A DNA stretch of 64,000 nucleotides from Rheinheimera riviphila (lineage in GTDB: Bacteria > Pseudomonadota > Gammaproteobacteria > Enterobacterales > Alteromonadaceae). Shown piece after piece: positions 4,568-31,014 of the stretch. Location of the stretch: assembly GCF_004005945.1 (NCBI RefSeq), contig NZ_SACS01000001.1:186001-250000 (forward strand). The letters are read 5' to 3'. Numbering within the stretch: the stretch's first letter is position 1; each line of letters begins with the position of its first letter. The notes beneath the pieces are model-generated. The model saw only the letters and a program-made list of their open reading frames with translations, was not told the origin of the DNA and searched no databases. Position numbers and translations under genes: made by a program.

Positions 4568-4576
4568 CGCCAGGCC

Positions 4577-5506: not shown

Positions 5507-5508
5507 GC

Positions 5509-6000: not shown

Positions 6001-6007
6001 CACACAC

Positions 6008-6541: not shown

Positions 6542-9366
6542 GCAAACACCCGTGGTTCGCCCGCACCTTCAACGTTATCGACACAGCGCAAACAAATTTC
6601 CGGATGGGCAGCGTTGGCCCCCACATCGTGGCGATGGTGCCAGCAACGTTCGCACTTGGCGGCACTTGATGCAGCAACCAGTACTGATAAACCCGCGATA
6701 TCAGTGGCGACCGCTTCGGCCGGAGCCGCCGCAGCCGACACATCGGCAGTTGACGTAATCAGCACAAACCGCAGCTCGGTTGCGACTTTTTGTAGCGCAG
6801 CAGCTAAATCACCAGTTGCGAACAACGTCACTTCAGCCTGCAGCGAAGCACCAACTTTGCCTTCTTTACGCGCGCCTTCAATCACTTTATTCACTTCATC
6901 GCGCACCAACAGCAGTTGTTGCCAGAAGGCGTCATCCAATTGACCGGCCGGCACTTGATCTAACCCTTGATACCAGACTTCGGTAAACACAAAAGTAGCA
7001 GGCCGCGCTGGCAGAATTTCCCAGATTTCCTGCGCGGTGAAACTCATCACCGGCGCCATCCAGCGCACCATGGCTTCAATGATATGATAAAGCGCCGTCT
7101 GACAAGAACGACGGGCGTGACCATCAGTTTTGGCGGTGTACTGACGGTCTTTAATCACGTCCAGATAAAAACTGCCCAGCTCAACGGTACAGAAATTCAT
7201 TAGCTTCTGACTGACCACATGGAACTGATAATCATCATAAGCAGCGATAATTTCTTGTTGCAGCGCCGCGGCGCGTTGCACCATCCACAGGTCCAGCTCA
7301 ACCAGCTCGTTCAGTGGTACTAAATCGGTGGCCGGATTAAAACCGTGCAAATTCGCCAGCAGGAAACGCGCGGTATTACGAATACGGCGGTATTTATCCG
7401 CTGCGCGGTCCAGAATCTCATCGGACACCGTCATTTCTGAGGTGTAGTCGGTCGTTGCCACCCACAAACGTAAAATGTCGGCGCCCAATTTGTTCATCAC
7501 GTCTTGCGGCGACACCACATTGCCCAATGACTTGGACATTTTGCGGCCTTCACCATCGACGGTAAAACCATGAGTCAACACTTGTTTGTACGGCGCGTGG
7601 TTTTTGATGGATACGCCGGTCATCAACGACGACATAAACCAGCCACGGTGCTGATCTGAACCTTCTAAATACAAATCAGCTTGGGTAGCGCCGCCAAATT
7701 CCGGTCTTGGGTCGATGACACAAGCGTGTGTCACACCTGAGTCAAACCAGACGTCCAGCGTGTCAGACACTTTGACGTACTGCACAGCTTCTTCGCCCAG
7801 CAAAGTCGCGGCTTCTAAATCAAACCAGGCCTGAATGCCTTGTTGCTCAACCAGTTTCGCCACTTGCTCCATCAGATCTTTGGTATTTGGGTGCAAAGCG
7901 CCGGTGTCTTTATCGACAAACAGCGCGATCGGCACACCCCAAGTCCGCTGACGGGAAATACACCAGTCTGGCCGACCGGCGACCATTTTTTCAATCCGCA
8001 GCTGACCCCAATCCGGGATCCAACGGGTTTGTTCGATTTCTGCCAGTGATTTGCTGCGAAGACCGGCTTGCTCCATGCTGATAAACCACTGCGGCGTAGC
8101 GCGGAAGATAATCGGCGTTTTATGGCGCCAGCAATGTGGATAGCTGTGGGTGTAAGATTTATGCAACAACAACGCGCCAGCTTCCTGCAGCGCAGCAACC
8201 ACAGTGTCATTGGCTTTAAACACATGTTGACCGGCAAACATTGGAGTATCTGGCAGATAAACGCCATTAGCACCAACCGGGTTTGCCACTTCCAGACCAT
8301 ATTTCAGGCCGACCACAAAGTCTTCCTGACCGTGGCCAGGTGCAGTGTGTACAGCGCCGGTACCAGAATCGGTGGTGACGTGATCACCAAGCACCACTGG
8401 CACTTCGAAGTCGTACAATGGATGTTTTAATTTCGCCAGTTCCAGTGCCGAGCCTTTGCAAAAGCCCAGCGCATGGTATTTTTCGATATTGGCGCGCGCC
8501 ATCACGTCTTTGACTAAATCGGTGGCGATCACCAAACGTTCAGCACCATTTGGACCTGCTTCAACCTGCACCAGGCTGTAGTTTAACTCGGCATTTAACG
8601 CCACAGCGCGGTTGGCTGGAATGGTCCATGGCGTGGTGGTCCAGATCACGACTGAAATCGGACCCTGACCACGATGATTCTCCGGATGATCAAATTTATC
8701 AGCCACGGTTTCATCGACAAAACGGAACCGCACGTCAATGGCAGGTGATACTTTGTCCTGATATTCCACTTCTGCTTCGGCTAAAGCTGAACCGCAGTCA
8801 GTACACCAATGCACTGGCTTAAAGCCTTGTTGTAAATGGCCATTGTCGATAATGCGCGACAAAGAACGGATGATGTTGGCTTCAAAGGCAAAATCCATGG
8901 TGCGGTATGGGTTGTCCCAATCGCCCAGCACGCCTAACCGGATAAAGTCAGTTTTTTGTGCTTCGATTTGGGTCAGCGCATAGTCGCGGCATTTTTGCCG
9001 AAATTCTGCTGCCGATAATTTCACGCCGGGCTTGCCGTATTTTTTCTCGACCACCAGCTCGATGGGCAGGCCGTGACAATCCCAACCCGGTACATAAGGC
9101 GCGTCAAAATCGTCCAGCGTTTTAGCTTTAACAATGATGTCTTTTAGAATTTTATTAACAGCGTGACCGATATGAATGTTGCCGTTGGCGTAAGGAGGGC
9201 CATCGTGCAGGATAAAAGTTTTTTTGCCTTTTTTGGCGGCGCGGATTTGGCCATACAAGTCGGCTTGGGTCCAGTTCGCCAGCATTTGTGGCTCACGCTG
9301 CGCCAGATTGGCGCGCATGGCAAATGCCGTATCCGGCAAATTTAACGTATGTTTGTAATCACTCAT
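6538..9366 (-). CDS. ileS: isoleucyl-tRNA synthetase
   Basis: A 942-residue class I aminoacyl-tRNA synthetase. The HIGH signature is in [15 protein letters not shown], the KMSKS loop in [10 protein letters not shown], and the editing domain carries [14 protein letters not shown]. The C-terminus ends in a zinc-binding cysteine set (CERCWHHR and CLRCVDNV), as in bacterial type IleRS. It charges tRNA-Ile in the cytoplasm. The lspA start overlaps its stop, and ribF lies 54 bp upstream, preserving the ribF-ileS-lspA order. Confidence 0.98.
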
Positions 9367-9420
9367 CCCATCTATCCCGTGTTAGCTCTGTCATTGACAT
9401 GCCAGGCATGCCTGATCATT

Positions 9421-10350
9421 TTAATTTGAAATACTGAAATAAGACCGCGCAGCGGCGGCATCCAGTTGAATTTGTTGCTGAAGTTCAGGCAAGGACGCAA
9501 ATTTGCGCTCGGCGCGGATTTTATGGCGCAAAATGACTTCGATTTGCTGGCCATATAAATCACCCTGAAAATCAAAAAAATGCGCTTCCAGTTGTTCTTT
9601 TTTACCTTGCAGCGTCGGTCTGGCGCCAATGTTGGCCACACCATGAAAATGCCCCTGCCCGGTGAATGCTTCGATGGCGTACACCCCGCGCACCGGCAAT
9701 TTATTGCGATATAACCACACGTTAGCGGTTGGAAAACCAAGTTGCCGTCCGACTTTTTCACCGTGGCGCACCCGCCCCATCAGTGAAAACGGCCGACCCA
9801 GCATCGCTTCGGCCAGTGCCAGCTCGTCGCGCTCCAGCGCTTGCCGGATCAAGGTGCTGGAAACCCGGACATCGTCTTGTTTTAAGCTGGCGGTGTTGGT
9901 CAGACCAAAACCATGTTGCTGTGCCGCTTGTTGTAACAAGGCAAAATTACCGCTGCGGTTTTTACCAAAACAAAAGTCATCACCAACAATCAAATGCTGC
10001 ACATTGAGTTTTTCCAGCAGCAAACCGGTAATAAACTGCTCCGGATCCTGCGCCGCAAATTCGCGGTTAAAACTGGCGCAAAGCAAGCGGTCCAGCCCCT
10101 GCACTTTTAACCAATGATACTTTTCGCGAAAACGCGTTAAGCGGGCTGGCGCTGCCGCCGGATTAAACAATTCCAGCGGTTGCGGCTCAAATACCATCAC
10201 CACTGCCGGTAATGATCTGGCTTTGGCAATTTGCTGCACCTGGCTGAGCACCGCCTGGTGCCCCAGATGCACACCGTCAAAATTACCGATGGTTAACACG
10301 CAACCCCGATGATTTGGCTTAATATTTTGCAGGCCGCGAATTAACTCCAT
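9421..10350 (-). CDS. ribF: bifunctional riboflavin kinase/FMN adenylyltransferase RibF
   Basis: A 309-residue two-domain enzyme making FMN and FAD from riboflavin. The N-terminal nucleotidyltransferase domain has the signature GNFDGVHLGHQ (~22-32) and VGDDFCFGKNRSG; the C-terminal flavokinase domain begins near residue 185 with GRVRHGEKVGRQLGFPTANV and includes the conserved PTLQGKKEQLEAHFFDF segment. Length is standard. It lies between murJ and ileS in the usual order. No strong Shine-Dalgarno is visible before the ATG. Confidence 0.97.
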   Translation of the reverse strand: MELIRGLQNIKPNHRGCVLTIGNFDGVHLGHQAVLSQVQQIAKARSLPAVVMVFEPQPLELFNPAAAPARLTRFREKYHWLKVQGLDRLLCASFNREFAAQDPEQFITGLLLEKLNVQHLIVGDDFCFGKNRSGNFALLQQAAQQHGFGLTNTASLKQDDVRVSSTLIRQALERDELALAEAMLGRPFSLMGRVRHGEKVGRQLGFPTANVWLYRNKLPVRGVYAIEAFTGQGHFHGVANIGARPTLQGKKEQLEAHFFDFQGDLYGQQIEVILRHKIRAERKFASLPELQQQIQLDAAAARSYFSISN

Positions 10351-10400
10351 GCCGCTATAACTACTCTGATTTGCTGTGTAAACGGCCGATTATAACTGCA

Positions 10401-11978
10401 TCAGCTTTTAGTTTCAGCAATTGTCTGCCGTTTCAGCTGGTTTATCCTGACGCCGAATAGCCAAAGCAACGCAAAATAGGCCGGCGCTGCGATCACCACC
10501 AATAAAGTGAGCTGTTTCGCTTTAGCCGAAAAAGCCATTTGTTGCCACTGACCAATCTCCGGCGAAGCCCACCACAGTACTGCAGCCATCAGACCTGCAG
10601 CCAGCACCGCTTTAGCTAGCAACCATAACGTCGCGGTTGCGCACTGATAAATATCGCGTTTGACTAAACCATGGTAAAGCAACCAGGCGTTTAATCCGCC
10701 CGACATCGCCGTCGCCAAAGCGAGGCCGACATAACTGATAAATGGCGCCAACATCAGGTTAAACACCATATTCGCCACCATCGCGATAATACCAATCCGT
10801 ACCGGTGTTTTAATGTCCTGCCGCGCATAAAAGGCCGGTGCCAGCACTTTAATCAGCATCAGCGGCACCAAACCTGAGGCATACGCCATCAAACTCAAAC
10901 TGCTTTGGCTGGCATCAAAAGCGGTAAATTTACCGTGCGCAAATACCGTTAATAAAATCGGTTCCGCCAGTACAATTAAACCCGCCATCGATGGCAAGCC
11001 GAGCAGACAAATAATGCTGATTGACCAGTCTAAAGTGCGTTTAAATTCCTGATGGTTGTCGGTGGCAAACTGCCGGGATAAGCTCGGTAAAATCACCGTG
11101 GCAATCGCAATACCAAACATGCCAAGCGGAAACTCCAATAATCGGTCTGAGTAATACAACCATGCGACGGAGCCGGTCATTAAAAATGACGCAATAATGG
11201 CATCCAGCAATAAGTTAATTTGACTCACCGATACCCCAAACAACGCCGGTAACATCAGTTTGCGGATACGGGTGACATGTTCATCTTGCCAGGCCCAGCG
11301 GGGTCTCACTAATAAACCGGCTTTGGCTAAAAACGGCAGTTGAAACAAAAACTGCAACAAACCACCTAAAAACACCCCCCAGGCTAATGCGGCAGAAGCG
11401 TCATCAAAATAAGGCGTCAGATAAATAGCGGCACCGATCATCGCAATATTCAAAAAGACCGGACTAAAAGCGGCCACCGCAAATTTATTGTAGGTATTGA
11501 GGATAGCGCCGGATAAAGCGACAAAAGTGATAAACCACAGATAAGGAAAGGTGATTTTTAACAGAAAACTGGCCTGCAGGTATTTTTCACCCGCAGGCTC
11601 GTCATTGAGATAAGCTTCAAACCAGCCCATGCCAAACAAGGCCATTAATACCGGCGAACCAATCATCCCCAGCAAAGTGACCCCGGTGACAATCAAACCC
11701 AGGGTGCCAGAGGCTTTAGCCATCAGTTCACGCACCGCATCGTCGCCGTGTTTAGCTTTGACTTCCGACAACACCGGCACAAAAGCCTGCGAAAAAGCGC
11801 CTTCAGCAAATAACCGACGCAGAAAATTAGGAATGCGGTTGACCATTAAAAACACGTCAGCCATGGCGCCAGCGCCCAATACGTTCGCGGTGACCACGTC
11901 CCGGACCAGCCCTAACACCCTGGAAATCAACGTCATGACACTGACAATCATGCCTGATTTGAATAACTTAGCGGACAC
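10401..11978 (-). CDS. murJ: lipid II flippase MurJ (MviN)
   Basis: A 525-residue polytopic inner-membrane protein of the MOP superfamily, with about 14 hydrophobic segments. The N-terminal signature SGMIVSVMTLISRVLGLVRD and NRIPNFLRRLFAEGAFSQAF are diagnostic of MurJ, which flips lipid II for peptidoglycan synthesis. It is divergent from rpsT, as in Pseudomonas and E. coli relatives. The intergenic space of about 170 bp holds the rpsT promoter and must also hold the murJ promoter. Confidence 0.97.
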   Translation of the reverse strand: MSAKLFKSGMIVSVMTLISRVLGLVRDVVTANVLGAGAMADVFLMVNRIPNFLRRLFAEGAFSQAFVPVLSEVKAKHGDDAVRELMAKASGTLGLIVTGVTLLGMIGSPVLMALFGMGWFEAYLNDEPAGEKYLQASFLLKITFPYLWFITFVALSGAILNTYNKFAVAAFSPVFLNIAMIGAAIYLTPYFDDASAALAWGVFLGGLLQFLFQLPFLAKAGLLVRPRWAWQDEHVTRIRKLMLPALFGVSVSQINLLLDAIIASFLMTGSVAWLYYSDRLLEFPLGMFGIAIATVILPSLSRQFATDNHQEFKRTLDWSISIICLLGLPSMAGLIVLAEPILLTVFAHGKFTAFDASQSSLSLMAYASGLVPLMLIKVLAPAFYARQDIKTPVRIGIIAMVANMVFNLMLAPFISYVGLALATAMSGGLNAWLLYHGLVKRDIYQCATATLWLLAKAVLAAGLMAAVLWWASPEIGQWQQMAFSAKAKQLTLLVVIAAPAYFALLWLFGVRINQLKRQTIAETKS

Positions 11979-18620: not shown

Positions 18621-18838
18621 GTCCACTCCGAAAAACTGCTGTTAACGCATTCTAACAAAGCGCGCTATTGCGTCCAGCAGATTATCGAATGCCATGTGCT
18701 GCAGTACCGCTTGCCTTGCCCTGATGAACACTGCTCGAAATTTCCACAAATTGTCATAAATCTGTGACCAGACAGTCATACCTCAGGCTTAGCCTTGCCC
18801 TGACCGCAGCTTGGAATAAGAACAGCGCAGGAGGCTTT

Positions 18839-20548
18839 ATGATCAGCGTAGAAAAAATGGTGCAACAACATTTGCCACAACTGCAGCAACAACCCTGGCT
18901 GGAAAAACCAGTCACCGGGGCGCTGAAACATTTGCTGCATGAACAGGACTTTATTGCCTTTTCTGAACAGTACCCGCATCTACAGGGCATTGAATTTATT
19001 GAGCAAGTTCTCGATTATTTCAAATTCAGTTACACAGTGCGCGACAACGAACTGGAACGTATTCCAACCTCTGGCCGGGTGGTGATTATTGCCAATCATC
19101 CGATTGGATCCTTGGATGGACTCGCGCTGGTGAAGCTTATTCACGACATTCGCCCTGATGTAAAAGTCATTGCGAATCAATTATTAAGTGCAGTGACGCC
19201 GCTCCACGCCATGTTACTGCCAGTCAATAATATGCAAGGTGGCACCGAGCGGCGCTGCATCGATCATATTCATCAGCATCTGGCGCAGGAAGGTGCAGTG
19301 ATTGTGTTTCCGGCCGGCGAAGTATCCAGACTCAAACCGAACGGCGTGCGCGACGGCAAATGGCATGCTGGCTTTTTAAGGTTTGCCCGTTCCAGCAAAG
19401 CGCCAATCCTGCCGGTATACATTGATGCGCGCAACTCGGCATTGTTCTACGGCGCCTCGATGCTGTACAAACCGCTGGCGACCATGTTGCTGGTACAGGA
19501 AATGTTCCGGCAAAAACATAAAAGCATCAGCATGCGGATTGGCGAGCTGATCCCTTATGACAGTTTTGCACAGTTGCCAATGGAAACGCCGGCCATTGTG
19601 AAGCTGTTTAAAAAGCACTTATACCGGCTGGCAAAAGACAAAAAGCCATTGCTGCGTACCCAAACCGCTATCGCCCATCCAGAAGACCGCCGTGAGCTGC
19701 GTAAAGCGATTGAAGCATGTCAGCTGTTGGGGCAAACCGCTGATGGTAAACAGATTTATCTGTATCAATCGGCGAAAAGCTCACCGATCATGCGCGAAAT
19801 TGGCAGGTTACGTGAAGTGTCGTTCCGGGCGGTTGGTGAAGGCAGTGGTGCGCGGCGGGATATCGACCGCTTCGACAGTTATTACGAGCAATTGATTTTA
19901 TGGGACAAAGACGATTTGGAGATTGTCGGCGCTTACCGTTTTGCCGACACCCAAAAAATCATCGCTGCACAGGGCTTGCAGGGGCTTTATACCGCATCGT
20001 TATTTACTTTTAACCAGCAAATGCAGCCCTTTTTGGCGCAGGGGCTAGAGCTTGGCCGTAGTTTTGTGCAGCCGAAATATTGGGGCAAACGCAGTCTGGA
20101 TTATCTGTGGTACGGCATTGGCGCTTATTTACAGCAAAACCCGCACATCCGTTATTTATTTGGCGGCGTCAGCTTATCGAACAGTTACCCCAAAGCGGCG
20201 CGTGATTTATTGGTGTACTTCTATACGCTGTACTTCAGCGAAGAAAACGACACTGCGATCCCTAATATTCCATACCAGCTACCGTTTGAAACCTTGGCGC
20301 AGCTGCAACAACACTTTTCCGGTACTGATTACAGCGCCGACTTTACCCAGCTCAAACACCTGCTGGCGCATATGGGGCTGAATATTCCGACTTTATATAA
20401 ACAATACAGTGAAATCGCCGAACCCGGTGGCGTGCAATTTCTGGCTTTTGGCATTGATCCGGACTTCGCCGATTGTGTGGATGGACTGGTGCTGGTGGAT
20501 TTAACCAAGCTGAAACCAGCGAAAAAGCAGCGGTATTTGGGCGACTAA
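18839..20548 (+). CDS. olsF: bifunctional acyltransferase, OlsF-like ornithine lipid synthase
   Basis: A 569-residue fusion. The N-terminal half is a PlsC/LPLAT acyltransferase with the HPIGSLD motif (H87, D93) and FPAGEVSR; the C-terminal half is an OlsB-like GNAT-fold acyl-ACP N-acyltransferase (IMREIGRLREVSFRAVGEGSG, LGRSFVQPKYW, LFGGVSLS). OlsF of Serratia and Flavobacterium has the same two-domain arrangement and makes ornithine lipids, one half N-acylating ornithine and the other O-acylating the lyso-lipid. The start at 18839 has AGGAGG 5-6 nt upstream; the 25 residues before it are excluded. Monocistronic, with a strong terminator. Confidence 0.82.
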   Translation: MISVEKMVQQHLPQLQQQPWLEKPVTGALKHLLHEQDFIAFSEQYPHLQGIEFIEQVLDYFKFSYTVRDNELERIPTSGRVVIIANHPIGSLDGLALVKLIHDIRPDVKVIANQLLSAVTPLHAMLLPVNNMQGGTERRCIDHIHQHLAQEGAVIVFPAGEVSRLKPNGVRDGKWHAGFLRFARSSKAPILPVYIDARNSALFYGASMLYKPLATMLLVQEMFRQKHKSISMRIGELIPYDSFAQLPMETPAIVKLFKKHLYRLAKDKKPLLRTQTAIAHPEDRRELRKAIEACQLLGQTADGKQIYLYQSAKSSPIMREIGRLREVSFRAVGEGSGARRDIDRFDSYYEQLILWDKDDLEIVGAYRFADTQKIIAAQGLQGLYTASLFTFNQQMQPFLAQGLELGRSFVQPKYWGKRSLDYLWYGIGAYLQQNPHIRYLFGGVSLSNSYPKAARDLLVYFYTLYFSEENDTAIPNIPYQLPFETLAQLQQHFSGTDYSADFTQLKHLLAHMGLNIPTLYKQYSEIAEPGGVQFLAFGIDPDFADCVDGLVLVDLTKLKPAKKQRYLGD

Positions 20549-22054: not shown

Positions 22055-22203
22055 AATTTTTCAACAAATTAGCTTGTGCAGAGCAGAACAGGATTGTTGC
22101 CACAGCATAGCTGTTTTGCCCACGTTGAGACGAAGCATTGACGTGCAGATTGACCCGCTGGTGGTGATGGCAGGCTTACGTTGGGGTATGTAATTTTAAG
22201 GCT

Positions 22204-22243
22204 AAAAAGGGCGGAGCTCATGCATTAGCTCCGCCCCCTTTTT
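22204..22243 (-). terminator. terminator of the lanthipeptide operon
   Basis: AAAAAGGGCGGAGCT at 22204-22218 pairs with AGCTCCGCCC...TTTTT at 22227-22243; on the minus strand the hairpin ends in TTTTT directly after the exporter gene. The rest of 21887-22246 holds the transporter promoter and nothing else I recognise. Confidence 0.85.
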
Positions 22244-22246: not shown

Positions 22247-24328
22247 CTAATTTAACTCAATCACCCGATCAACCGAAGCAATCGTCTCAGGGCGATGGGC
22301 AATAATCACCCTGGTGATCGACAGTTGTTGCATGGCCTGGCTGACAAAAGATTCAGTTTTGGTATCGAGATGACTGGTGGCTTCGTCCATAAACAAAATC
22401 CGTGGCTTGCGGTATAACGCCCGCGCCAACAAAATTCGTTGCTTCTGGCCGCCGGATAACGCAGAACCCATATCGCCAATTAAACTGTTGTAACCCATTG
22501 GCATTTTGGCGATATCGTCGGCAATCGACGCCATTTGCGCACTGGCGATAATGCGTTCCATGTCAAAGCTATCATCAAAAAACGCGATATTGTCGCGAAT
22601 AGAGCCGGATAGCAGCTGATCATCCTGCATCACGGCGGCAATTTGCCCGCGATACTGCGCCAAACCTAACTGCGCCAGCGGGATACCATCGATCAACACC
22701 TGGCCCTGTTTTGGTTGCAATAACCCCAGCATCAGTTTCATCAGGGTGGTTTTGCCACAACCGGACGGGCCGATTAACGCCACTGATTCACCGGCTTGAA
22801 TGCTCAGACTGAGATCAGCCAACACCGGATCCGTGACATCGCTGTAGGCAAAACTCAAACCGCGAATTTCCAGATTGCCCTGAATTTGATGGGGTCGGTC
22901 TTGCTCCGGATAAACTTGTTCTTTTTTGGTCAATGCAACATCGCCCAGCCGCTCAAAATGCAAATTTAGCATCCGGAACTGAAATGCCTTTTCGATGAGC
23001 CGCGCCATCCGTTCCATAAACTGGCTTTTATAGGCCATAAAAGCAAACAACATCCCGGTACTAAAACCACCTGCCAGCACTAGTTTCGCGCCTAAATACA
23101 CCACCAGAATGTTCTCCAGCCCAAACAACAAGCGGTTGCAGGTCTGAAAACTAATGTTAAACACGCCAAGCTGCATATCTTTGTTGGTCGCTTCGACATT
23201 CAGATTCTGCCAGCCGCCTTCGCGTTTCACTTCAGCGCCAAACAGTTTGATGGTCTGAATAGCCCGCACCGTTTCAATAAAATTCGACTGCTCTTTTGAG
23301 TCCGCCAGAATTTGTTGCTCGGTGATCTGCCGGACTTTTTGGTACACCGCAATTCGAAACAACGCGTAAAGGAGCACTGCAGCAAGCACCACCATCGAGA
23401 GTTGCGGACTATAGATAAAAATCACCACCAGAATCGCCAGCGCCATCACCCCGTCAATCAGGGTTTCAATCAGCCCGGTGGTCAGCAGTTCACGTACCTG
23501 ATTGAGCGATCCAAAGCGCGATAACACATCACCGATATGGCGTTTTTCAAAATAACCGAGCGGTAAGCGGATCAGATGGTGAAACAGATTGGATGCCATC
23601 TGAATATTCAGCGAATTGCCAAAATGCAGCAGTACAAAACTTCGCACCGTACTGGTGGTCACTTCAAACAGCAGCACCAAAGAAAAACCAACAGCCAGAA
23701 TAATCAACAAGTTATCGTCGGAAGTCAGCAAGACATCGTCCACCACCAACTGCATGTAATAAGGCGCAATCAGGGTAAATACTTGCAATAATAACGACAG
23801 TGACAACAGCAAAAACAATGAACGTTTAAAGCCGGTGATTTTTGACCAAAAATCCGATAACCCCAGTTTACTGACGTTCTCTTTACAACTGAAATCAGTG
23901 GTTGGCAGCAGCTCCAGCGCAATGCCAGTGAAGTGTTTTGACACTTCCGCCAGCGGTATATTGCGCTCGCCGTAGGCCGGATCAAGTATCACGCAACGAT
24001 CCGCTTTGACCTCTTTGAGCACCACAAAGTGATTCATATCCCAATGCAAAATACAGGGCGTGCTGAGCGCGGCCAAATCATCCAGTTCAATCCGCAGTGG
24101 CCGACTGGTCAGTTCCAGCCGTTCGGCGAATTTCATCAAATCCAGTAAGGTACAACCTTCAATCGATAACTCGAACTTTTGCCGCAGTTCGTTTAAATCA
24201 GTGTGATAACCATGATAGCCGCTGACCATTGCCAGACATGCCAGACCACACTCAGCCGCTTCGGTTTGCAGCACTAAGGGTAACCGCTGCCCACTTCGCC
24301 AGGTGAGGCGCGCTGCCGGATTATTCAT
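22247..24328 (-). CDS. peptidase-containing ABC transporter (C39), lanthipeptide exporter
   Basis: A 693-residue PCAT. An N-terminal C39 cysteine-protease domain (1-~145) has the oxyanion Gln21 and catalytic Cys27 in LQTEAAECGLACLA, His100 in HWDMNHFVVL and Asp116. Six membrane helices follow (~165-440), then an ATPase domain with Walker A GPSGCGKTT, signature LSGGQKQR and Walker B ILFMDEATSHLD. Such proteins cut double-glycine leaders and export the product. The precursor encoded 6 kb upstream has an AGG leader end. The start overlaps the hlyD-like stop (TAATG). It is the last gene of the lanthipeptide operon, followed by a strong terminator. Confidence 0.95.
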   Translation of the reverse strand: MNNPAARLTWRSGQRLPLVLQTEAAECGLACLAMVSGYHGYHTDLNELRQKFELSIEGCTLLDLMKFAERLELTSRPLRIELDDLAALSTPCILHWDMNHFVVLKEVKADRCVILDPAYGERNIPLAEVSKHFTGIALELLPTTDFSCKENVSKLGLSDFWSKITGFKRSLFLLLSLSLLLQVFTLIAPYYMQLVVDDVLLTSDDNLLIILAVGFSLVLLFEVTTSTVRSFVLLHFGNSLNIQMASNLFHHLIRLPLGYFEKRHIGDVLSRFGSLNQVRELLTTGLIETLIDGVMALAILVVIFIYSPQLSMVVLAAVLLYALFRIAVYQKVRQITEQQILADSKEQSNFIETVRAIQTIKLFGAEVKREGGWQNLNVEATNKDMQLGVFNISFQTCNRLLFGLENILVVYLGAKLVLAGGFSTGMLFAFMAYKSQFMERMARLIEKAFQFRMLNLHFERLGDVALTKKEQVYPEQDRPHQIQGNLEIRGLSFAYSDVTDPVLADLSLSIQAGESVALIGPSGCGKTTLMKLMLGLLQPKQGQVLIDGIPLAQLGLAQYRGQIAAVMQDDQLLSGSIRDNIAFFDDSFDMERIIASAQMASIADDIAKMPMGYNSLIGDMGSALSGGQKQRILLARALYRKPRILFMDEATSHLDTKTESFVSQAMQQLSITRVIIAHRPETIASVDRVIELN

Positions 24329-25569
24329 TACAACCGTCCCTGAATACTGTAAATTGGGTCAAACAACCACTGCAATAAACTACGTCGTTCGGTGACGATA
24401 TCGGCTTCAAGCGACATACCGGCTTTGAGCGGCAACTCGCGATTGTAAGCACTGATCTGCTGCGCACTGAGCTTCAGCCGCAGCCGGTAACTGGGTTCCG
24501 TCAGTGTCATATCGGTCACTTCATTAGGTAACAACACAGTACTGCTGACTTCAATAATTTCGGCCTGATGGACACCAAAACGTTGATATGGAAAAGCATG
24601 GTAGCGAATGCGTGCTTGCTGACCAACGTCGACAAAAGCGATGGCACTGGTTGGCAAGTATAAAATAGCCTCCAGTTGATGGTGGGCTGGTAACAAACTG
24701 AGCGCTGGCACGCCCTGATTCAGCTGCTGACCGGCTTTGACCAGCACCGCACTGACCACACCTGCCACCGGCGCGGTGATCAGGCTGCTTTGTTCATGCT
24801 GCAAGCGGGCCAGCTGGTTTTTATGTTCGGAGATTTGCTGCTCCAGCTGCGTGAGTTCTTGCTGATATTGCAGCGGCAGTTGTTGTAACAAGTTTTGTTG
24901 CTGGGAAAGTTGTTCAGAAAGTGCCAGTTGCTGACCATTCAGCACCTTGTCCTGTTGCTGCAAAGACAACAATAAATCGCGTTGCCGATTTAACTCGATT
25001 TCCGAAATATAGCCGGTGCCGTTGAGTTTCTGCAGTTGTTGTACTTGTTGTTGGTTAAGTTGCAGCCGTTCGCCAAAGGTGCTGATCTGTTGATTTAATT
25101 CAATCAGTTGCAGCTCTAAACTGCTGATTTTCTGTTTGGTTTCAGTAAGCTGCAGCTGGTGTTTCTGCTGATTTTGCTGCTTTTGCGCCAGCAATGCGTC
25201 CATCATCGCCTGCCGTTCCTGTAAGAGCGTGGCATTCAGTTCCGGCTGGCCTTCGGCATAGAGGCGGGATGTTAACTGCAGCAATGGCTGGCCTTGTGTG
25301 ACTAGCTCGCCTTCTTTGACCAGCACCGCACTCACCACCCCGGCACTGCTGGTTTGTAACCGGACCACACCTTGTTCCGGTTGCAATAAACCGACAGCGG
25401 TTTGTTTACGTTGATAGTCGCCGCTCAATAAAAATATAAGACTGATCAACGCGATAACGCCAATTAACCAGGTTAACCACACCAAAGCAGGTGGCCGGGT
25501 TAAGCTGACTTCTCCTTGTAACCGTTGTTGCTGTCGGGCAACCGCTTCAGGGCGAAATAATGAATTCAT
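24328..25569 (-). CDS. HlyD-family periplasmic adaptor for peptide export
   Basis: A 413-residue membrane fusion protein: one N-terminal transmembrane helix (~residues 29-49), a lipoyl-like segment (AGVVSAVLVKEGELVTQGQPLL), a long glutamine-rich coiled-coil hairpin (~105-265), the second lipoyl half repeating the same AGVVSAVLVKAG motif, then a beta-barrel domain with LKAGMSLEADIVTERRSLLQWLFDPI typical of bacteriocin-export adaptors. It links the C39 ABC transporter to an outer-membrane channel; no TolC gene is adjacent, so a chromosomal TolC is presumably shared. Confidence 0.93.
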   Translation of the reverse strand: MNSLFRPEAVARQQQRLQGEVSLTRPPALVWLTWLIGVIALISLIFLLSGDYQRKQTAVGLLQPEQGVVRLQTSSAGVVSAVLVKEGELVTQGQPLLQLTSRLYAEGQPELNATLLQERQAMMDALLAQKQQNQQKHQLQLTETKQKISSLELQLIELNQQISTFGERLQLNQQQVQQLQKLNGTGYISEIELNRQRDLLLSLQQQDKVLNGQQLALSEQLSQQQNLLQQLPLQYQQELTQLEQQISEHKNQLARLQHEQSSLITAPVAGVVSAVLVKAGQQLNQGVPALSLLPAHHQLEAILYLPTSAIAFVDVGQQARIRYHAFPYQRFGVHQAEIIEVSSTVLLPNEVTDMTLTEPSYRLRLKLSAQQISAYNRELPLKAGMSLEADIVTERRSLLQWLFDPIYSIQGRL

Positions 25570-25844
25570 TCACTCTCTTATTATTTTGATTTTGGTCTCT
25601 ATAGTCCGAACCTTTCAAAACCAGCATATCGACTCCGGCTAAGCGCGGCAATCGAATTCAGTACCCTGACAATTCATTCAGCCCCTATTCGATTAAAAAG
25701 CAAACGACTGAGCCAACTTACAAATTTACTGGCGCAGCCGTCTACAGAACTGGTACGGCATCAGCGCCAGCACTGGCTTTTCTGCCATCGTCAATTCTGA
25801 ACTATCGGACCAGACCTCTTGGAAGACTGAATCTATGCGCATCG
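25570..25844 (-). other. 275-bp gap between lanB and hlyD-like gene
   Basis: The gap between dehydratase stop and adaptor start could hold a second promoter, but no strong -35/-10 pair was recognised. It contains a 26-codon leftward ORF (25627-25547, starting MLVLKGSDYRD) with a well placed GGAG; it overlaps the adaptor start in another frame and may be a coupling uORF. No hairpin terminator was seen. Confidence 0.35.
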
Positions 25845-28800
25845 TCAAACTTTTTCATGACGCTGTTTCGATTGGCATGCCAAATAATAGCGACGTAAAA
25901 AATCGTACACGACAAACTCCTGTTCACGGCCATAGGCTTTAAACATGCGGTTATTAAACATATGCAGCAGTGAATGTAATAAGGTGTCCAAAGTACAACT
26001 GAGTTTTTGTTGTTGCTGTAGCGCGACAATCTGCTGCACCACAGGCCTGAGCTGTTGTATCAACTGCTGCCGTAGTACCAACATCTGGTGTCGCGGTTGC
26101 TCATCGGTGCCTGACAGCAACGCCTGGAAGTCCTGCTGTAGCTGCCCCTGATAATCACGGTATTTTTTGCCTAATTGCGTGCGCAAATAGGCATGCTCCT
26201 GGAATTCCTGGCCAAAACGCTGCCGCAATTCGCTGATTAAATTCAGCTTTTGCGCTGCATCATAGTCAAAGACATCCAATAAAGCGTCCGCTCCCAGCAA
26301 AGCCATGCGCCAACGCACTGATTCACCATGCTCGGTGATCAAGGCCAGACCGGCCAACACAAATTCGCTGTCCGCCTGAAACAGCTGTTCTGCCAGGATC
26401 ACCGCCTCATCACCGCCATAGCGCTCTACTTCGCGCTGATAGGTAAAGAGTTCAATTTTACGCACCCGCTGACTCACCAACCAGCTTGCTAATTGCTGAT
26501 GTAATAACGGTAGTACCTGACCATACAAAACGGACGGCTCGCCAAATAAGCGCAAACGCACATGCCAGTCCGGATCGCCATAACGAATAAAGAACCATTG
26601 CTGCACCCATCCTTGTCGCTGACATTGCTGGAGTAACGGCGCGATGCTCTGTGTCAGTACCTGCTCGGCGGTACTTTGTGCGGCATAGATTTTCAGACTC
26701 AGCCATTCAGAGCCTGGCGCAAAATCCCGTTGAATAGTTGGGTCCAATTGCTTGGCGGGATGTTGTTGCAACGTCACAAAAGGTTTCGCCTGCGGATTTA
26801 GCATAGGCACAATGATTTCGTGCGCAAAAGCGCCTTCATCATTAAATACCACGCTTTGGTACTGCATGATCAGTGACTCTTTTAACAGGATTTGTTGCTG
26901 TCCGGTGGTCTCGGCCAGCAACATGGCAATCATTACCGGGTGATGCAGATCAACCGTCAGCACATTATCACTCACCGCATAACAGACATATCTGGGCAAC
27001 TGGTAGCGTAGTTCCAGCGCCTGAAAAGCCTCGGCCTGCCAGTTGTCATTCACAAGTAATGCTTCCAGTAAACTACGCTCCACCTGCCACTGCGCCTCTT
27101 GCAAAATGACATGTTCAAGCATCACCCGCGGTTGTCGTTCCAACGGCAACAAAGCAGCAGGGGTGCTATAACGTGGCAGCTGGGCTTGCTGATGTTGCAG
27201 CATGCATAAAAAGCGATAGATGCCTAAACTGCGGGAGGAATAATTGTGGGCAGAGGTTAACCGGGGTATCACTTGTTTGTTCAATCGCTTTGACCACAAT
27301 TTGACCTGACCCGCTTCGACAAACACATACAGATCGCGCACCGGGATCTGCCGCTCTGCTGGCAGTTCGGTGTCAGCCAAAAACACAATCTCATACTGCC
27401 GCAATGCCGGCCGCGCAATCACATTACCGGGACGCCCGTCTGGCATATGGACCACTTCGGCAAAAACAACATCTGGCGATAAGGCTTCTTCTGCAGCCAA
27501 GTAGGCACTAACCTGCTGTTGAAGCTGCTGATCCAAGTGACAAAATCGTCCTAACAAATTTGCCCCGGAAGGCCCTGAATAACCATGATAATGCAATAAC
27601 AATTGTCCATCGTGATCCTGATAACAACTGACGTTCGCGGCAAAAGCAGCTGGCAACTGCTGCCACAACAGCGCTTGATCAACATTTTTTAACAGGTCGT
27701 CACTGCTTAGCTGGATCGCTGCCGTATTCGCTTGCTGCTGCATGGCTTTGAACATTTGTAGTTCGAGCGCACTTTGCGACGGCTTTTTTCCGGGACGATT
27801 GCGATTGGCGATATTGATCCCGGCCAATAAAGGTGTTTCGTAGCCGGTGTCGGCAGAAAACGTAATTCCAGTCTCATCATCCAGCAGCTGCAACAGCCGT
27901 ACAAACCGGCCTTCAAAACGTTGCTGAAACTGATTGATGAACTCCTGCAACGGATTGTCTGCAGTTGTTGTTTGGGCTTTTAACGTCAGTAAGGTTCGCT
28001 CCAGCGCCATCTGCAAACTGCTGTCAAGCTTTGAAGCTGTCATCGACCGTCGAACATCGGTCTGAAACAATTTATTCTCAGACACCTTGTAGGGGAGCTG
28101 TTGCAACTGCTGCACTACTGCCTGATAGTCCTGCGGCGTGGCAGCTTGTTGCTGATCAAAAGTAGCCAATTGTGTTAATGCCACTTGCAGCCGCTCACCC
28201 TCGTGCTGGTTCCCGGCCTGCAATAACGACTGCACAAAGGATTTATCCGGCTGACCACTGGTTAATGGCAGCTTTAAATCGGCGATCAAGACCTGTTCCT
28301 GGATCAACTGCTGTAGATAGTGTCCGACGTCCTGTTGATCAGCTTCAGGATGGCGTGCACAAAACAACTGAATGAACTCACTTTGTAATTTTGGTTCAGC
28401 CGCGACATCCAGCATGCTTTCCAACGCTTCGTCCAGTTCAACCGAGCTTAAACGGTATTGGCGCTGCGAAGCAGATTGATAAGGTTCGATATAATGAAGG
28501 TGCGAGCCCATGCGATATAACGTGCTGTTGGGAGCATAACGCAGAAGCTGCTGCCCCTCCGGGCTTTGTGCCCATTCCTGCTGAATAGTTGCCAGATAAA
28601 ACATATCCAGCCGGGTTTTGCGTCCATCCAATTGCAGATGACCAGGCCGCAAAGCCGTGGTATCGGCGAAAAAACCGGTGGCCACTCCCGAAAACAACCC
28701 GAAGGGCGTTGGTCTGCTACTCATCCGGATCAGATATTTTAATAATGCCACCGTCACCTTGCGGCCAGATTTACTCTGCGGTTTGTCGCGCCATAATTCC

Positions 28801-28985
28801 AACCTTTCCAACAATGAAGGACTGGCTAAATAAATGGCCTCCAACACCCCCGGCGACGCTAACCAACTGCTGAGGTAATCCAAAAGCCCGGTTTCTGTCA
28901 CCGGCAAATCGCAGATTTTATTTACACTTAACCTGGGCAAACGAACGACAAAAAAGTCTGCCTTACATTCAGTTTTACGGCTCAT
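25845..28985 (-). CDS. lanB: class I lanthipeptide dehydratase LanB (full length)
   Basis: A 1046-residue single-chain LanB. The N-terminal glutamylation domain shows RMSSRPTPFGLFSG (residues 88-100, nearly identical to NisB) and LGIYRFLCMLQHQ. The C-terminal elimination (SpaB_C) domain has WFFIRYGDPDWHVRLRLFG (~798-816), matching NisB Arg784/Arg786, and TYQREVERYGGDE (~850), matching Glu823/Arg826. It should use glutamyl-tRNA-Glu to activate core Ser/Thr and then eliminate glutamate to give dehydroalanine/dehydrobutyrine. Fusion of both domains in one chain differs from split Bacteroidetes enzymes such as those of pinensin. It follows lanC by 20 bp; AAGGTG precedes the ATG. Confidence 0.96.
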   Translation of the reverse strand: MSRKTECKADFFVVRLPRLSVNKICDLPVTETGLLDYLSSWLASPGVLEAIYLASPSLLERLELWRDKPQSKSGRKVTVALLKYLIRMSSRPTPFGLFSGVATGFFADTTALRPGHLQLDGRKTRLDMFYLATIQQEWAQSPEGQQLLRYAPNSTLYRMGSHLHYIEPYQSASQRQYRLSSVELDEALESMLDVAAEPKLQSEFIQLFCARHPEADQQDVGHYLQQLIQEQVLIADLKLPLTSGQPDKSFVQSLLQAGNQHEGERLQVALTQLATFDQQQAATPQDYQAVVQQLQQLPYKVSENKLFQTDVRRSMTASKLDSSLQMALERTLLTLKAQTTTADNPLQEFINQFQQRFEGRFVRLLQLLDDETGITFSADTGYETPLLAGINIANRNRPGKKPSQSALELQMFKAMQQQANTAAIQLSSDDLLKNVDQALLWQQLPAAFAANVSCYQDHDGQLLLHYHGYSGPSGANLLGRFCHLDQQLQQQVSAYLAAEEALSPDVVFAEVVHMPDGRPGNVIARPALRQYEIVFLADTELPAERQIPVRDLYVFVEAGQVKLWSKRLNKQVIPRLTSAHNYSSRSLGIYRFLCMLQHQQAQLPRYSTPAALLPLERQPRVMLEHVILQEAQWQVERSLLEALLVNDNWQAEAFQALELRYQLPRYVCYAVSDNVLTVDLHHPVMIAMLLAETTGQQQILLKESLIMQYQSVVFNDEGAFAHEIIVPMLNPQAKPFVTLQQHPAKQLDPTIQRDFAPGSEWLSLKIYAAQSTAEQVLTQSIAPLLQQCQRQGWVQQWFFIRYGDPDWHVRLRLFGEPSVLYGQVLPLLHQQLASWLVSQRVRKIELFTYQREVERYGGDEAVILAEQLFQADSEFVLAGLALITEHGESVRWRMALLGADALLDVFDYDAAQKLNLISELRQRFGQEFQEHAYLRTQLGKKYRDYQGQLQQDFQALLSGTDEQPRHQMLVLRQQLIQQLRPVVQQIVALQQQQKLSCTLDTLLHSLLHMFNNRMFKAYGREQEFVVYDFLRRYYLACQSKQRHEKV

Positions 28986-29005
28986 AGCACACCTTGTTCT
29001 TATTC

Positions 29006-30205
29006 TCAGGCTAACAACAGTGCATCAACCCAATCTGGTTCCTGACCATCGGCGATCAGTAAGCAAAGCCCAACACCGGCATATCCGCTCAGGAAGGAGC
29101 TATCCTCTTCAAAATGCCTGTTATCGGGGCCATCTTTCAGCTTGTGGAAGCCAGCCAGTCCTTGCTGCTCAAAGCGTTGTAAGACAAAGTCTCGCCAGAA
29201 AGACACGACCGCATCAATTTTTGGATGCGGATAATATTGCCTTAACAAAATAAAGATTAAGACGAGGCCAGCCGCGCCATGACAAAAACCGGCATCATGA
29301 ATCATCGCTTCATTCGGACTCCGACTGCTGGCATGCAAACTAATTTTACATGCCACATCGGTAAAGCGCTGTTCCGACAATAACAAGCCGGCACGGAACA
29401 GGGTTAATGCAATCGTGGCATCGCCATAACACCACCCCAATCTGGATTTAGCCGGATAACCAACAAGATTGGCAAAATAGCTACCGTATAATTCAGGATC
29501 TTGCTGTGCTTTTAATAACCAATTGCAACCAGCACGCAAGGTATTCATCGCGTTTTGTCGTTTACTTTTGTCGGTTATCGAAGGGATTAGCGCCACCAGT
29601 GCAGCCAACGTACCCGGCACTCCATGAGCCAACCCCAAGTTAAATTCTTGTTCAGTCGATGCCTTAATCAAACAATAAGTAGAGGACTTGTGCGTGGGCC
29701 AGGCGCACTCCTGCTCATTAAAGAATTGTGCGCGTCCAACTATTTTATCGACCAGCTTTTCAACCAGTTCAACCCCCTGGCCGTGTCGTGCACGCCGGGC
29801 AGCATAAGCAGCAATCCCATTCAAGCCGAGCACATATTCGTATTCATCGCTCGCAGTCACTGACATCACATAATCACCAAGTGCCATGTCGGTGTTCGCA
29901 TTAAAATCTGCCTGATACTCTGTGTCATTGAGGATGAATTCATAAAGCCAGGCGATACCTGATAAACCATATCCAAAGCTCATTGGATAAGGCGTGTGCA
30001 GGTTGGGAGATAAATCGTCAAGCAAGGCTTCTAACTGAAGGTTTGAAACCGATGCAGGTACCGAACGTGCTGCGCACCATAAAAATAAAAGTTGGCCAGC
30101 CCGGCCCGCTAAAAAACCAGGCTCTTCCACAGGACTCAGGTTTTTGACAATATGTTCAGTAAGCAAATTTACAATGTTTCTAATACTGGCTTGCGCAACG
30201 GCCAA
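29006..30205 (-). CDS. lanC: lanthionine synthetase C-like cyclase LanC
   Basis: A 399-residue LanC-fold cyclase that joins cysteine thiols to dehydrated residues. The zinc ligands are Cys259 in GWCYGD, Cys308 and His309 in FCHGAAGL; His194 in GLAHGVPGT matches catalytic NisC His212. Where NisC has Asp141 (DVIEGLSG) this protein appears to read Glu123 (EYVLGLNG), a conservative change. The start codon is TTG at 30205, with GGAG at ideal 6-nt spacing and no alternative ATG nearby. It lies 82 bp after the precursor gene, beyond a hairpin terminator, and 20 bp before lanB. The rare start and attenuator should keep enzyme below precursor levels. Confidence 0.95.
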   Translation of the reverse strand: MAVAQASIRNIVNLLTEHIVKNLSPVEEPGFLAGRAGQLLFLWCAARSVPASVSNLQLEALLDDLSPNLHTPYPMSFGYGLSGIAWLYEFILNDTEYQADFNANTDMALGDYVMSVTASDEYEYVLGLNGIAAYAARRARHGQGVELVEKLVDKIVGRAQFFNEQECAWPTHKSSTYCLIKASTEQEFNLGLAHGVPGTLAALVALIPSITDKSKRQNAMNTLRAGCNWLLKAQQDPELYGSYFANLVGYPAKSRLGWCYGDATIALTLFRAGLLLSEQRFTDVACKISLHASSRSPNEAMIHDAGFCHGAAGLVLIFILLRQYYPHPKIDAVVSFWRDFVLQRFEQQGLAGFHKLKDGPDNRHFEEDSSFLSGYAGVGLCLLIADGQEPDWVDALLLA

Positions 30206-30236
30206 GGTATACTCCTACACTCAATTGATCTTCCTG

Positions 30237-30266
30237 ACAAAAAGCAAGAGGAAACCCTCTTGCTTT
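30237..30266 (-). terminator. attenuating terminator between precursor and lanC
   Basis: An 11-bp perfect stem (AAAGCAAGAGG and CCTCTTGCTTT, 4-nt loop, 30241-30266) is followed on the minus strand by TTTTT and sits 21 bp past the precursor stop. All downstream genes run the same way, so partial read-through is expected; precursor-heavy transcripts are usual in lanthipeptide operons. Confidence 0.8.
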
Positions 30267-30287
30267 CACAACGTCATTCAGCAGCTA

Positions 30288-30524
30288 TTATGGGATCATG
30301 CAGCAAATGTTGGTCCAGCCGAACGGATCAGACGGACAACCCTGTTCATTTGCAGTCACAAGACCACCACCACCGCCGCCGCCACAACCTGCAGCAGGTG
30401 TACTTGGTGTGCAACAGCCACAAGTACAGTTACCACCAGCAATTTGTGGGGTCAGATCATTAGGCAGCGCTTGGTTATCCAGAGACAGATTTACGAGTTG
30501 TGATTTTTTTAAGTTCAGTTTCAT
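30288..30524 (-). CDS. lanA: class I lanthipeptide precursor peptide LanA
   Basis: A 78-residue peptide. The leader (1-31) starts MKLNLKKSQLVNLSLDNQ, with a VNLSLD segment that may serve like the nisin FNLD dehydratase-binding box, and ends IAGG, a double-glycine site for the C39 exporter. The core (32-78) has eight Cys (33, 35, 37, 38, 47, 63, 74, 75), seven Ser/Thr (34, 39, 41, 42, 57, 65, 71) and seven consecutive Gly (48-54). At most seven thioether rings are possible, leaving at least one Cys. The start at 30524 has GGA about 10 nt upstream; an in-frame ATG 23 codons earlier lacks support. It heads the lan operon with its own AT-rich promoter region. No gene annotator would call it by size alone; context is decisive. 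Confidence 0.92.
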   Translation of the reverse strand: MKLNLKKSQLVNLSLDNQALPNDLTPQIAGGNCTCGCCTPSTPAAGCGGGGGGGLVTANEQGCPSDPFGWTNICCMIP

Positions 30525-30970
30525 TATTTTTTTCCTGTTGTTCTCACCTGACAAACTCAGGTAAGCAACAGATATCAGCAACAAATTCCACATTCAATAA
30601 AGTTGATTATTTATCACAACATTATCAAGAAAATATCAAATTACGCAACAACACCCTTTAGATAAATATTAATTAAGTTGTTATTTAACAATTACTTGCA
30701 GAAATATCAGCCTAATGGACATTTAACATGTTGCAAAGCCATGCACCAGCAAATCAGTCCGATCCGGATACCGCACTTTGCGACAGCTACGCTGCTGCCC
30801 GAAAAAATTGCCAGAGCGCCCCGCTCGCACCACACAGACACATCGTTCATACAATCAACAGAAATACCGTTATCGATATCCCGTAATCCGCAGGCAGGTG
30901 ATGCGATAAATGTTGAAGAGGGTGTTCAACCTAAAGATACAGATAAAGTCACAAACCAGAATTTCACCGA
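30525..30970 (-). other. AT-rich leader and promoter region of the lanthipeptide operon
   Basis: The 490-bp space between purL and lanA is much richer in A+T (especially 30595-30720) than the flanks. Just before lanA a small hairpin, ACCTGA-GTTTG-TCAGGT, could affect translation of the leader. Farther upstream (30720-30970) nothing was recognised; an ORF on the plus strand here runs into purL antisense and is not supported. Confidence 0.5.
30611..30639 (-). promoter_or_regulatory. candidate promoter of lanA
   Basis: Minus-strand TTGATA (30639-30634) and TGATAA (30616-30611, preceded by TG) are 17 bp apart, about 90 bp before the lanA start. No regulator gene accompanies the cluster. Confidence 0.4.
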
Positions 30971-30971: not shown

Positions 30972-30999
30972 AAAAAAGCCTGCACAAGGCAGGCTTTTT
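30972..30999 (-). terminator. terminator of purL
   Basis: AAAAGCCTGC-ACAA-GGCAGGCTTTT forms a strong stem with T-runs on either strand, 16 bp after the purL stop. It insulates purL from the lanthipeptide operon. Confidence 0.88.
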
Positions 31000-31014
31000 C
31001 CGAAATTCTTAGAA

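What the first reader, a model, noticed from the sequence alone, without database searches (positions are those of the whole stretch)
22247..30524. Complete class I lanthipeptide cluster in a gammaproteobacterium
One leftward operon encodes a precursor, a full-length LanB with both glutamylation and elimination signatures, a LanC with complete zinc ligands, a HlyD adaptor and a C39-peptidase ABC exporter. Class I lanthipeptides are best known from Firmicutes and Actinobacteria, with split-LanB examples in Bacteroidetes; a complete one in this lineage is uncommon and could give a new antibacterial or signalling peptide. It is bounded by terminators at 30972 and 22204 and sits next to housekeeping purL.
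Basis: partly seen in the sequence, partly recalled or inferred. Interest (0 to 1): 0.88.

Follow-up and report, generated by a model that had tools for sequence, protein, structure and literature searches.

The report
Class I lanthipeptide operon, modular family
The stretch encodes a complete set of genes for making and exporting a ring-bridged peptide of the nisin type in a gammaproteobacterium; that kind is already known in this bacterial family, but some of its relatives scatter up to about thirty different precursor genes around a shared pair of modifying enzymes, which may be new for this class.

Summary
Confirmed: a leftward class I lanthipeptide locus (LanA, LanC, LanB, HlyD, C39-peptidase ABC exporter) lies at 22247-30524, all genes open, catalytic motifs present. 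It is a new member of a known kind: products from this order have been made (thalassomonasins, viridisins, pseudorosins, PciA), and 20 of 196 sampled genomes of the family carry a relative.

Three things go further. (1) LanABC is a separable 5.3 kb block: sisters G006 and G012 keep the exporter beside purL under purifying selection without LanA, LanB or LanC; G021 and G016 have a more distant exporter there. (2) The genome has a second LanABC set, a broken third, and only one C39 exporter was found, so the exporter is probably shared. (3) The LanA leader occurs in the same 20 of 196 genomes as LanB. In five relatives 14-29 precursors with that leader are scattered over the genome: leaders 45-63% identical, cores barely more alike than shuffled ones, Cys in 99 of 104 cores, one LanB match each. 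This resembles prochlorosins, but with class I enzymes and CHG-type LanC. My paper searches found no description; the primary viridisin and thalassomonasin papers were not read. No product has been observed.

The parts
30288..30524 (-). LanA precursor, 78 aa; leader MKLNLKKSQLVNLSLDNQALPNDLTPQIAGG (31 aa) and 47-aa core with 8 Cys and 7 Ser/Thr and a Gly run
   Evidence: ORF and sequence; leader shared with relatives; residue count
29006..30205 (-). LanC cyclase, 399 aa, TTG start; C259, C308 and H309 as zinc ligands, H194, and E123 in the acid position
   Evidence: PF05147 1e-33; CYG, CHG and AHG kept in 24 of 24 aligned rows
25845..28985 (-). LanB dehydratase, 1046 aa, glutamylation and elimination domains in one protein
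   Evidence: PF04738 and PF14028 full length; matches to 9g04, 5ehk and NisB 4wd9; motifs in 23 of 23 rows that cover each
25570..25844 (-). gap between LanB and the exporter; homology to the exporter-only sister genome begins at 25658; a sigma-70-like site was listed at 25618-25589, but such sites are fewer here than in shuffles, so weak
24328..25569 (-). HlyD-type membrane fusion protein, 413 aa
   Evidence: PF13437; TIGR01843 below cut-off
22247..24328 (-). ABC exporter with N-terminal C39 peptidase, 693 aa; motifs ECGLAC, HWDMNHF, DPAYGE, Walker A, LSGGQ
25659..30968 (-). LanABC block (5.3 kb) that is absent from the otherwise colinear sister genome G006
   Evidence: blastn: homology stops at 25658 and resumes at 30969
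22209..22236 (.). terminator-like inverted repeat after the exporter, T run on both sides
30972..31000 (.). terminator-like inverted repeat after purL
   Evidence: read in the sequence
22133..22193 (+). 3' remnant of an ompW-type gene that is whole in sister genomes at this place
   Evidence: PF03922 for the gene of G006

Best explanation
The locus makes and exports a class I lanthipeptide. LanB binds the N-terminal leader of LanA, adds glutamate from Glu-tRNA to Ser/Thr of the core and eliminates it, giving dehydroamino acids. LanC, with its zinc site, adds Cys thiols to them. The C39 domain of the exporter cuts after IAGG, and the ABC/HlyD pair, with a TolC-like channel from elsewhere, releases the 47-residue core. 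A likely ring plan, from comparison with four precursors of G038 and G083, is T3-C6, S10 or T11 to C16, T26-C32, and an interlocked C-terminal pair from S34 and T40 to C43/C44, leaving C2, C4 and C7 for other rings or disulfides. The locus is built of two exchangeable modules: a leader-keyed LanABC block and a general GG-leader exporter that also exists without it. In this genome the exporter probably serves a second LanABC set as well. Shown: gene content, motifs, relatives, exporter-only sister loci. Inferred: all chemistry, cleavage site, ring plan, sharing of the exporter.
For: Domain matches; LanB hits to solved LanB proteins and LanC to NisC and other LanC-like proteins; catalytic motifs kept in 23 of 23 LanB rows that cover each and 24 of 24 LanC rows; precursor family with invariant L-S-x-D, P, T and GG in the leader and Cys in the core over 17 rows; leader and LanB occur in the same 20 of 196 genomes (1/C(196,20) is about 1e-27, relatedness ignored). 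C39 exporters cut after double-Gly motifs (PMC10885120, passages). Module reading: G006, G012 and G021 have an exporter beside purL and no match to LanB, the LanA leader or LanC; exporter dN/dS of host against G006 and G012 is 0.03-0.05. Besides the window's exporter the only host hit at E 1e-60 is 30% identical and, read in its alignment, has no Cys at the catalytic place. The second LanABC set has no exporter match within the 16 kb read.
Against: No product, transcript or activity is known. Position -7 of the leader is Thr, not hydrophobic as in the usual C39 signal (rule from PMC10885120 passage; Ile -4 and Leu -12 fit). 8 Cys and 7 Ser/Thr cannot all pair. No immunity or regulatory gene was recognised in the locus. 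Genes of kin are broken in some genomes (Alkalimonas LanA has an in-frame stop in the leader; G061 LanB is in pieces; host C36 remnant), so decay is common. The exporter of G021 at the same place is only 63% identical although purL is 90% identical, so the place is shared but the exporter is not simply the same gene in all sisters. The C39 search in the host used E 1e-60, so a distant second one cannot be excluded.
Confidence: 0.88

Rival explanations
1. A relic: the exporter is the living part, LanABC is a passenger on its way out and no longer expressed.
For: LanABC is missing in exporter-bearing sister species; a broken third set lies in the same genome; Alkalimonas LanA is interrupted.
Against: All five genes here are open with the motifs kept; LanB is 72% identical to Alkalimonas LanB over residues 1-1042.
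Confidence: 0.15
2. LanB and LanC modify the peptide, but the product is partly disulfide-bonded rather than fully lanthionine-bridged, because Cys outnumber Ser/Thr and cluster at the N terminus (C2, C4, C6, C7).
For: 8 Cys against 7 Ser/Thr; among the 31 precursors of relatives listed only one of G129 shares the NCTCxCC start.
Against: LanC active-site residues are kept; the four precursors of G038 and G083 have 4 Cys and 5 or 6 Ser/Thr with T-x-x-C and S...T-x-x-CC spacing.
Confidence: 0.25
3. A thiopeptide-like or other non-lanthipeptide product, since the LanB C-terminal domain scores in TIGR03891 (thiopeptide-type).
For: TIGR03891 200 bits, cut-off 48.
Against: The LanB N domain is full length and fused to it, a LanC is next to it, and no cyclodehydratase or pyridine synthase was recognised among the locus proteins.
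Confidence: 0.03
4. LanABC was recently inserted next to a resident exporter, rather than lost from its sisters.
For: LanABC is at this place in 1 of 22 genus genomes by LanB search, an exporter without it in at least 4 of the 9 sisters whose place was read.
Against: After its two sisters, the host exporter is nearest by path to LanABC-linked exporters of G129 and Alkalimonas (0.47, 0.48; the forks are unresolved), and LanB is about as distant from Alkalimonas as the exporter is (72% and 75%), which fits joint descent and later loss.
Confidence: 0.35

Closest known systems
Thalassomonasins A and B (Thalassomonas actiniarum), class I
   Same: LanB/LanC pair with linked precursors; relatives G081 and G114 encode linked cores of 25 aa with 3 Cys and 26 aa with 2 Cys, as a review states for thalassomonasins (PMC11433236 passages).
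   Different: Different core; no C39 exporter in the stretches of G081 and G114 read. The review gives a 29-aa leader, I read 31. That G081 or G114 is that species is inferred.
Viridisins (Thalassomonas viridans), class I
   Same: Three linked precursors with 4, 2 and 2 Cys per the review; G142 has three linked full-length precursors with 4, 2 and 2 Cys.
   Different: Different cores; the primary paper is not held, and the species of G142 is inferred.
Pseudorosins A-C (Pseudoalteromonas flavipulchra S16) and PciA (P. citrea)
   Same: Class I lanthipeptides made by heterologous expression (passages in PMC12819058, and PMC9993889).
   Different: Sequences not compared here.
Spirosoma oryzicola plasmid cluster NZ_CP089546
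   Same: Full-length LanB (33% identical), LanC, peptidase-domain ABC exporter, HlyD and annotated class I precursors with GG leaders.
   Different: Six linked precursors with another leader (LSLDKETI) and core, a two-component system, Bacteroidota.
Prochlorosins and synechococsins (ProcM, SyncM), class II
   Same: One promiscuous synthetase and many precursors with a conserved leader and variable cores scattered over the genome (passages), as in relatives G081, G142, G034, G164 and G039.
   Different: Class II LanM with CCG-type cyclase; here LanB plus LanC of CHG type and another leader. The window's own genome has only two intact precursors.
Nisin (NisB, NisC)
   Same: LanB and LanC families and motifs.
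   Different: NisP, NisT and immunity genes (recalled) are not here; a C39 exporter is.

Membership tests
Class I lanthipeptide biosynthesis | LanB with glutamylation and elimination domains | tested here: met
   PF04738 and PF14028 full length
Class I lanthipeptide biosynthesis | LanB catalytic residues | tested here: met
   R87, R91, T93, R801, E852, R855, H1008 kept in 23 of 23 rows that cover each motif (24 rows over 300 aa were aligned, broken LanB of G061 and C36 left out); the equation with NisB residues is recalled
Class I lanthipeptide biosynthesis | separate LanC with two Cys and one His as zinc ligands | tested here: met
   C259, C308, H309
Class I lanthipeptide biosynthesis | precursor with leader and Ser/Thr/Cys core next to the enzymes | tested here: met
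   30288-30524
Class I lanthipeptide biosynthesis | lanthionine in the product | not testable with these tools
   needs mass spectrometry
Class I lanthipeptide biosynthesis | precursor scores in a curated precursor family (not required of members) | tested here: not met
   no NCBIfam match for this LanA; 5 of 17 rows of the precursor alignment match NF038158 'class I lanthipeptide' weakly, best E 0.0013
C39 peptidase-containing ABC exporter | C39 catalytic residues, permease and ATPase in one chain | tested here: met
Prochlorosin-like scattered precursor system (relatives) | many scattered precursors with conserved leader and unrelated cores | tested here: met
   five relatives, 104 precursors with a GG-type site
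Prochlorosin-like scattered precursor system (relatives) | LanM with CCG-type cyclase as the synthetase | tested here: not met
   LanB plus LanC with CHG; G081, G114 and G142 have a further LanM-sized gene, G164 and G039 do not
Prochlorosin-like scattered precursor system (relatives) | scattered precursors are modified by the one synthetase | not testable with these tools
   needs co-expression
Prochlorosin-like scattered precursor system (this genome) | many scattered precursors | tested here: not met
   three leader matches, one of them a remnant
Thiopeptide | azole- and pyridine-forming enzymes in the locus | tested here: not met

The most novel reading that the evidence does not exclude
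In this bacterial family class I lanthipeptide synthesis is keyed to a short shared leader and not to the gene cluster. In some members one LanB/LanC pair works in trans on a library of 14 to 29 precursors scattered over the genome, whose leaders are kept and whose cores change freely, and a general GG-leader exporter is swapped in and out beside it. This would be a class I counterpart of the prochlorosins that reaches its breadth with an ordinary CHG-type cyclase. The window shows the compact end of that range: two LanABC sets, one remnant, one exporter.
Probability: 0.65. Interest if true: 0.75.

Novelty: new member of a known kind. Interest (0 to 1): 0.5.

Why it matters
The operon adds a precursor of unusual make-up (paired Cys at both ends, a Gly run between) to a young group of Gram-negative class I lanthipeptides. 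More widely, the scattered precursors in some relatives offer a natural test of how a LanB/LanC pair tolerates many unrelated cores, a situation described for class II in the passages I read. For P. citrea the authors found E. coli tRNA-Glu similar enough (PMC9993889 passage), so such systems may be easy to express. The exporter that remains where LanABC is gone shows how transport and modification modules can part.

Tried and rejected
Thiopeptide reading of LanB: rejected, no partner enzymes recognised. A second precursor in the window: none by the leader model. A GG peptide in the LanB-HlyD gap of the window, as read in Alkalimonas and G129: none found by eye. A common upstream element of scattered precursors: only Shine-Dalgarno-like words such as AAGGATAT stood out, in G081, with A/T-rich words near the shuffle level elsewhere; an SD-like word is near the start in 59 of 69 genes against 773 of 8064 ATG codons in the same loci. 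A CCG cyclase to explain breadth: not found. One of 17 precursor rows matched a conotoxin family weakly (E 0.0027); taken as a chance Cys pattern. Recent transfer of LanABC: neither supported nor excluded (key forks of the exporter tree are open, and the program warns of long branches). Loss against gain of LanABC: not settled. Papers on scattered class I precursors: four searches (25, 2, 0 and 1 papers listed) showed none that I recognised; I saw the listings and passages of four of those papers. Structure prediction was not run, because the sequence matches were decisive.

Rows dropped: two frames without a GG-type site and one duplicate; two more without such a site; one kept G142 row (L225, 1459-1755) looks like a frame-shifted copy. 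In some searches only part of the first look's candidates was scored for many genomes (at most 4 and 32), so counts there are lower bounds, for LanB too. The core-identity shuffle was done for three of the five genomes; no chance level was computed for the best-match figures. G016 (not among the 196) has a second-type LanB on a 5 kb contig, a borderline broken leader hit and no LanC match. G114's precursors were not read beyond the two linked ones. The place beside purL was read in the host and 9 sisters; 12 of 22 genus genomes were not examined there.
Full report
What is there. LanA, 78 residues, starts at 30524 and has a 31-residue leader ending in IAGG and a 47-residue core, NCTCGCCTPSTPAAGCGGGGGGGLVTANEQGCPSDPFGWTNICCMIP, with 8 Cys and 7 Ser/Thr. 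LanC begins at a TTG preceded by TAGGAG. LanB is one 1046-residue chain with both Pfam dehydratase domains full length. HlyD and a C39-peptidase ABC exporter follow after a gap of 275 bases.

Catalysis. LanB matches 9g04, 5ehk and NisB 4wd9 among solved structures. In an alignment with relatives the motifs RMSSRPTP, FFIRYGDPDWHVRLR, REVERYGG and HMFNNR keep their key residues in 23 of 23 rows that cover each (rows over 300 aa only); their equation with NisB residues is recalled. LanC matches NisC over its zinc region (E 5e-5) and keeps CYG, CHG and AHG in 24 of 24 rows; the acid before GLxG is Glu in 21 and Asp in 2 of the 23 rows that cover it. The C39 domain has its Cys, His and Asp motifs.

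Relatives. A scan of named genomes found Alkalimonas amylolytica (72%) and a Pseudoalteromonas (41%). In the unnamed whole-genome collection 24 of 196 genomes of the family match LanB, 4 of them only weakly (E above 1e-5, a C-terminal piece), leaving 20, one of these (G061) with LanB in pieces. In the order sample 6 of 394 match: four of the 20, one weak, and one new, G300. Class-wide, 6 of 369 match Pfam's LanB N domain and 4 pass its cut-off, the host included. Of the genus 2 of 22 match, the other (G016) only to the host's second type of LanB. Of 25 loci examined, 14 carry an exporter match together with LanB.

Precursor family. A leader model finds 31 precursor frames in those 25 loci. The core of the host's LanA combines an N-terminal part shared with one precursor of G129 (NCTC.CC...PSTPAAGCGGG) and a C-terminal part shared with four precursors of G038 and G083 (GC..SDP.GFT..CC..P). 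From these comparisons T-x-x-C near the start and S...T-x-x-CC at the end are the most likely rings (inference). In Alkalimonas the LanA leader is interrupted by a stop.

Leader and LanB go together. Searching the leader alignment in the same 196 genomes gave 20 genomes, the same 20 that have more than a weak LanB match. The chance of that overlap at random is about 1e-27, not allowing for relatedness. In the genus, apart from the host, only G016 gave a hit, borderline and broken.

Scattered precursors. Fourteen of the 20 genomes have one to three leader genes, but G081, G114, G164, G142, G039 and G034 have 29, 29, 27, 23, 16 and 14 (with all candidates scored and E up to 0.01, G081 29, G164 28, G039 17). 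I read these in five genomes. With a GG-type site there are 16 (G039), 29 (G081), 24 (G164), 14 (G034) and 21 (G142) genes, 104 in all; 99 have Cys in the core with Ser/Thr before it. Leaders are 45-63% identical in pairs, cores 21-23%; for three genomes shuffled cores gave 20-21% against 21-22% real, and Cys is in 66 of 69 cores and 1 of 69 leaders. A ribosome-binding-like word is near the start in 59 of 69, against 10% of control ATGs. Some cores are kept between species: of 29 in G081, 8 have a match of 60% or more in G142 and 7 in G034, while 13 and 14 have none of 40%; of 24 in G164 only 1 has such a match in G039 and 17 have none of 40%. G164 and G039 each show one LanB match and one LanC, so that pair must act in trans if these genes are used. 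G081, G114, G142 and G034 have three or four LanC-domain genes; in G142 a leader-type precursor lies beside one in a frame of 1112 residues, the size of a LanM, so some precursors may be handled by other enzymes.

Modules at purL. G006 is colinear with the window through OlsF, MFS, exporter and purL, but homology breaks at 25658 and resumes at 30969: LanABC is missing as a block. G012 and G021 also have an exporter directly beside purL and no LanABC, G016 has HlyD and part of an exporter there, and G009 fits across contig ends; G007, G015, G018 and G010 have neither. The other 12 genus genomes were not examined at this place. G006, G012 and G021 have no LanB, LanA-leader or LanC match anywhere. 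The exporters of G006 and G012 are 95% and 92% identical to the host's, with dN/dS 0.03-0.05, near purL's 0.03 (dS above 1 for the G012 exporter genes, so rough). Those of G021, G009 and G016 are only 63% identical although purL is 89-90% identical: the place is shared, but the exporter there has been replaced or has changed fast. An intact, constrained exporter without LanABC suggests other cargo (inference). Elsewhere in the genus exporters of 41-63% identity occur; those of G020, G005 and G004 lie beside small peptides with GG- or GA-type leaders of another kind.

One exporter, two sets. The host genome has a second LanA-LanC-LanB set on contig C70 with a family 2 glycosyltransferase and no exporter match in the 16 kb read, and a broken third set on C36. 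Apart from the window's exporter the only hit at E 1e-60 is a 30% identical transporter without Cys at the catalytic place, read in the alignment and not tested against families. Sharing of the exporter is therefore likely, but not shown.

Literature. I read passages only: class I lanthipeptides of this order have been produced (PMC9993889, PMC11433236, PMC12819058); scattered precursors are described for class II (PMC11251773, PMC12328550, PMC10783134). The papers listed showed no scattered class I precursors in what I saw; most were seen as listings only. The primary viridisin paper is not held, and the thalassomonasin and pseudorosin papers were not looked up.

Verdict. The window holds an intact new member of a known kind. 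The family around it shows a feature that may be a new variant: class I lanthipeptide synthesis keyed to a leader and spread over the genome.

Noticed in passing
L009 (G000:C70:70000-86000), 6092-11344: Second LanA-LanC-LanB set of the host genome with a family 2 glycosyltransferase behind LanB; a similar reading frame follows LanB in G016 (L011).
   Followed up: partly
L010 (G000:C36:28000-43000), about 3900-8366: A broken LanA and LanB with an open LanC, plus a group II intron fragment (RF02001) and maturase-like pieces, sit between genes that read like rpsQ and rplN inside the ribosomal protein operon.
   Followed up: partly
window 22133-22193: Only the 3' end of an ompW-type gene is left beside the exporter, where sister genomes have it whole.
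   Followed up: partly
L044 (G129), 3592-6280: Between LanB and HlyD lie an ATP-grasp peptide maturase like MvdC (E 3e-36, below cut-off) and two small peptides with leaders ending in AG or GG, as if a graspetide set shared the lanthipeptide exporter.
   Followed up: partly
L012 (Alkalimonas), about 11150-11310: A small GG-leader peptide of another type with a proline-rich core lies in the LanB-HlyD gap (read).
   Followed up: no
G201 (L049): LanB and one leader gene, but no LanC-domain match in the genome.
   Followed up: no
G142:C2:376811 and 377929: A precursor with the class I leader lies beside a LanC-domain protein of LanM size, so the leader may also serve a class II enzyme.
   Followed up: no
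L053 (G115), 6356-6748: Precursor with a core of repeated CGST-like units.
   Followed up: no
window 18764-20548: Near the locus lies a bifunctional ornithine lipid synthase OlsF (NF052615, over cut-off).
   Followed up: no
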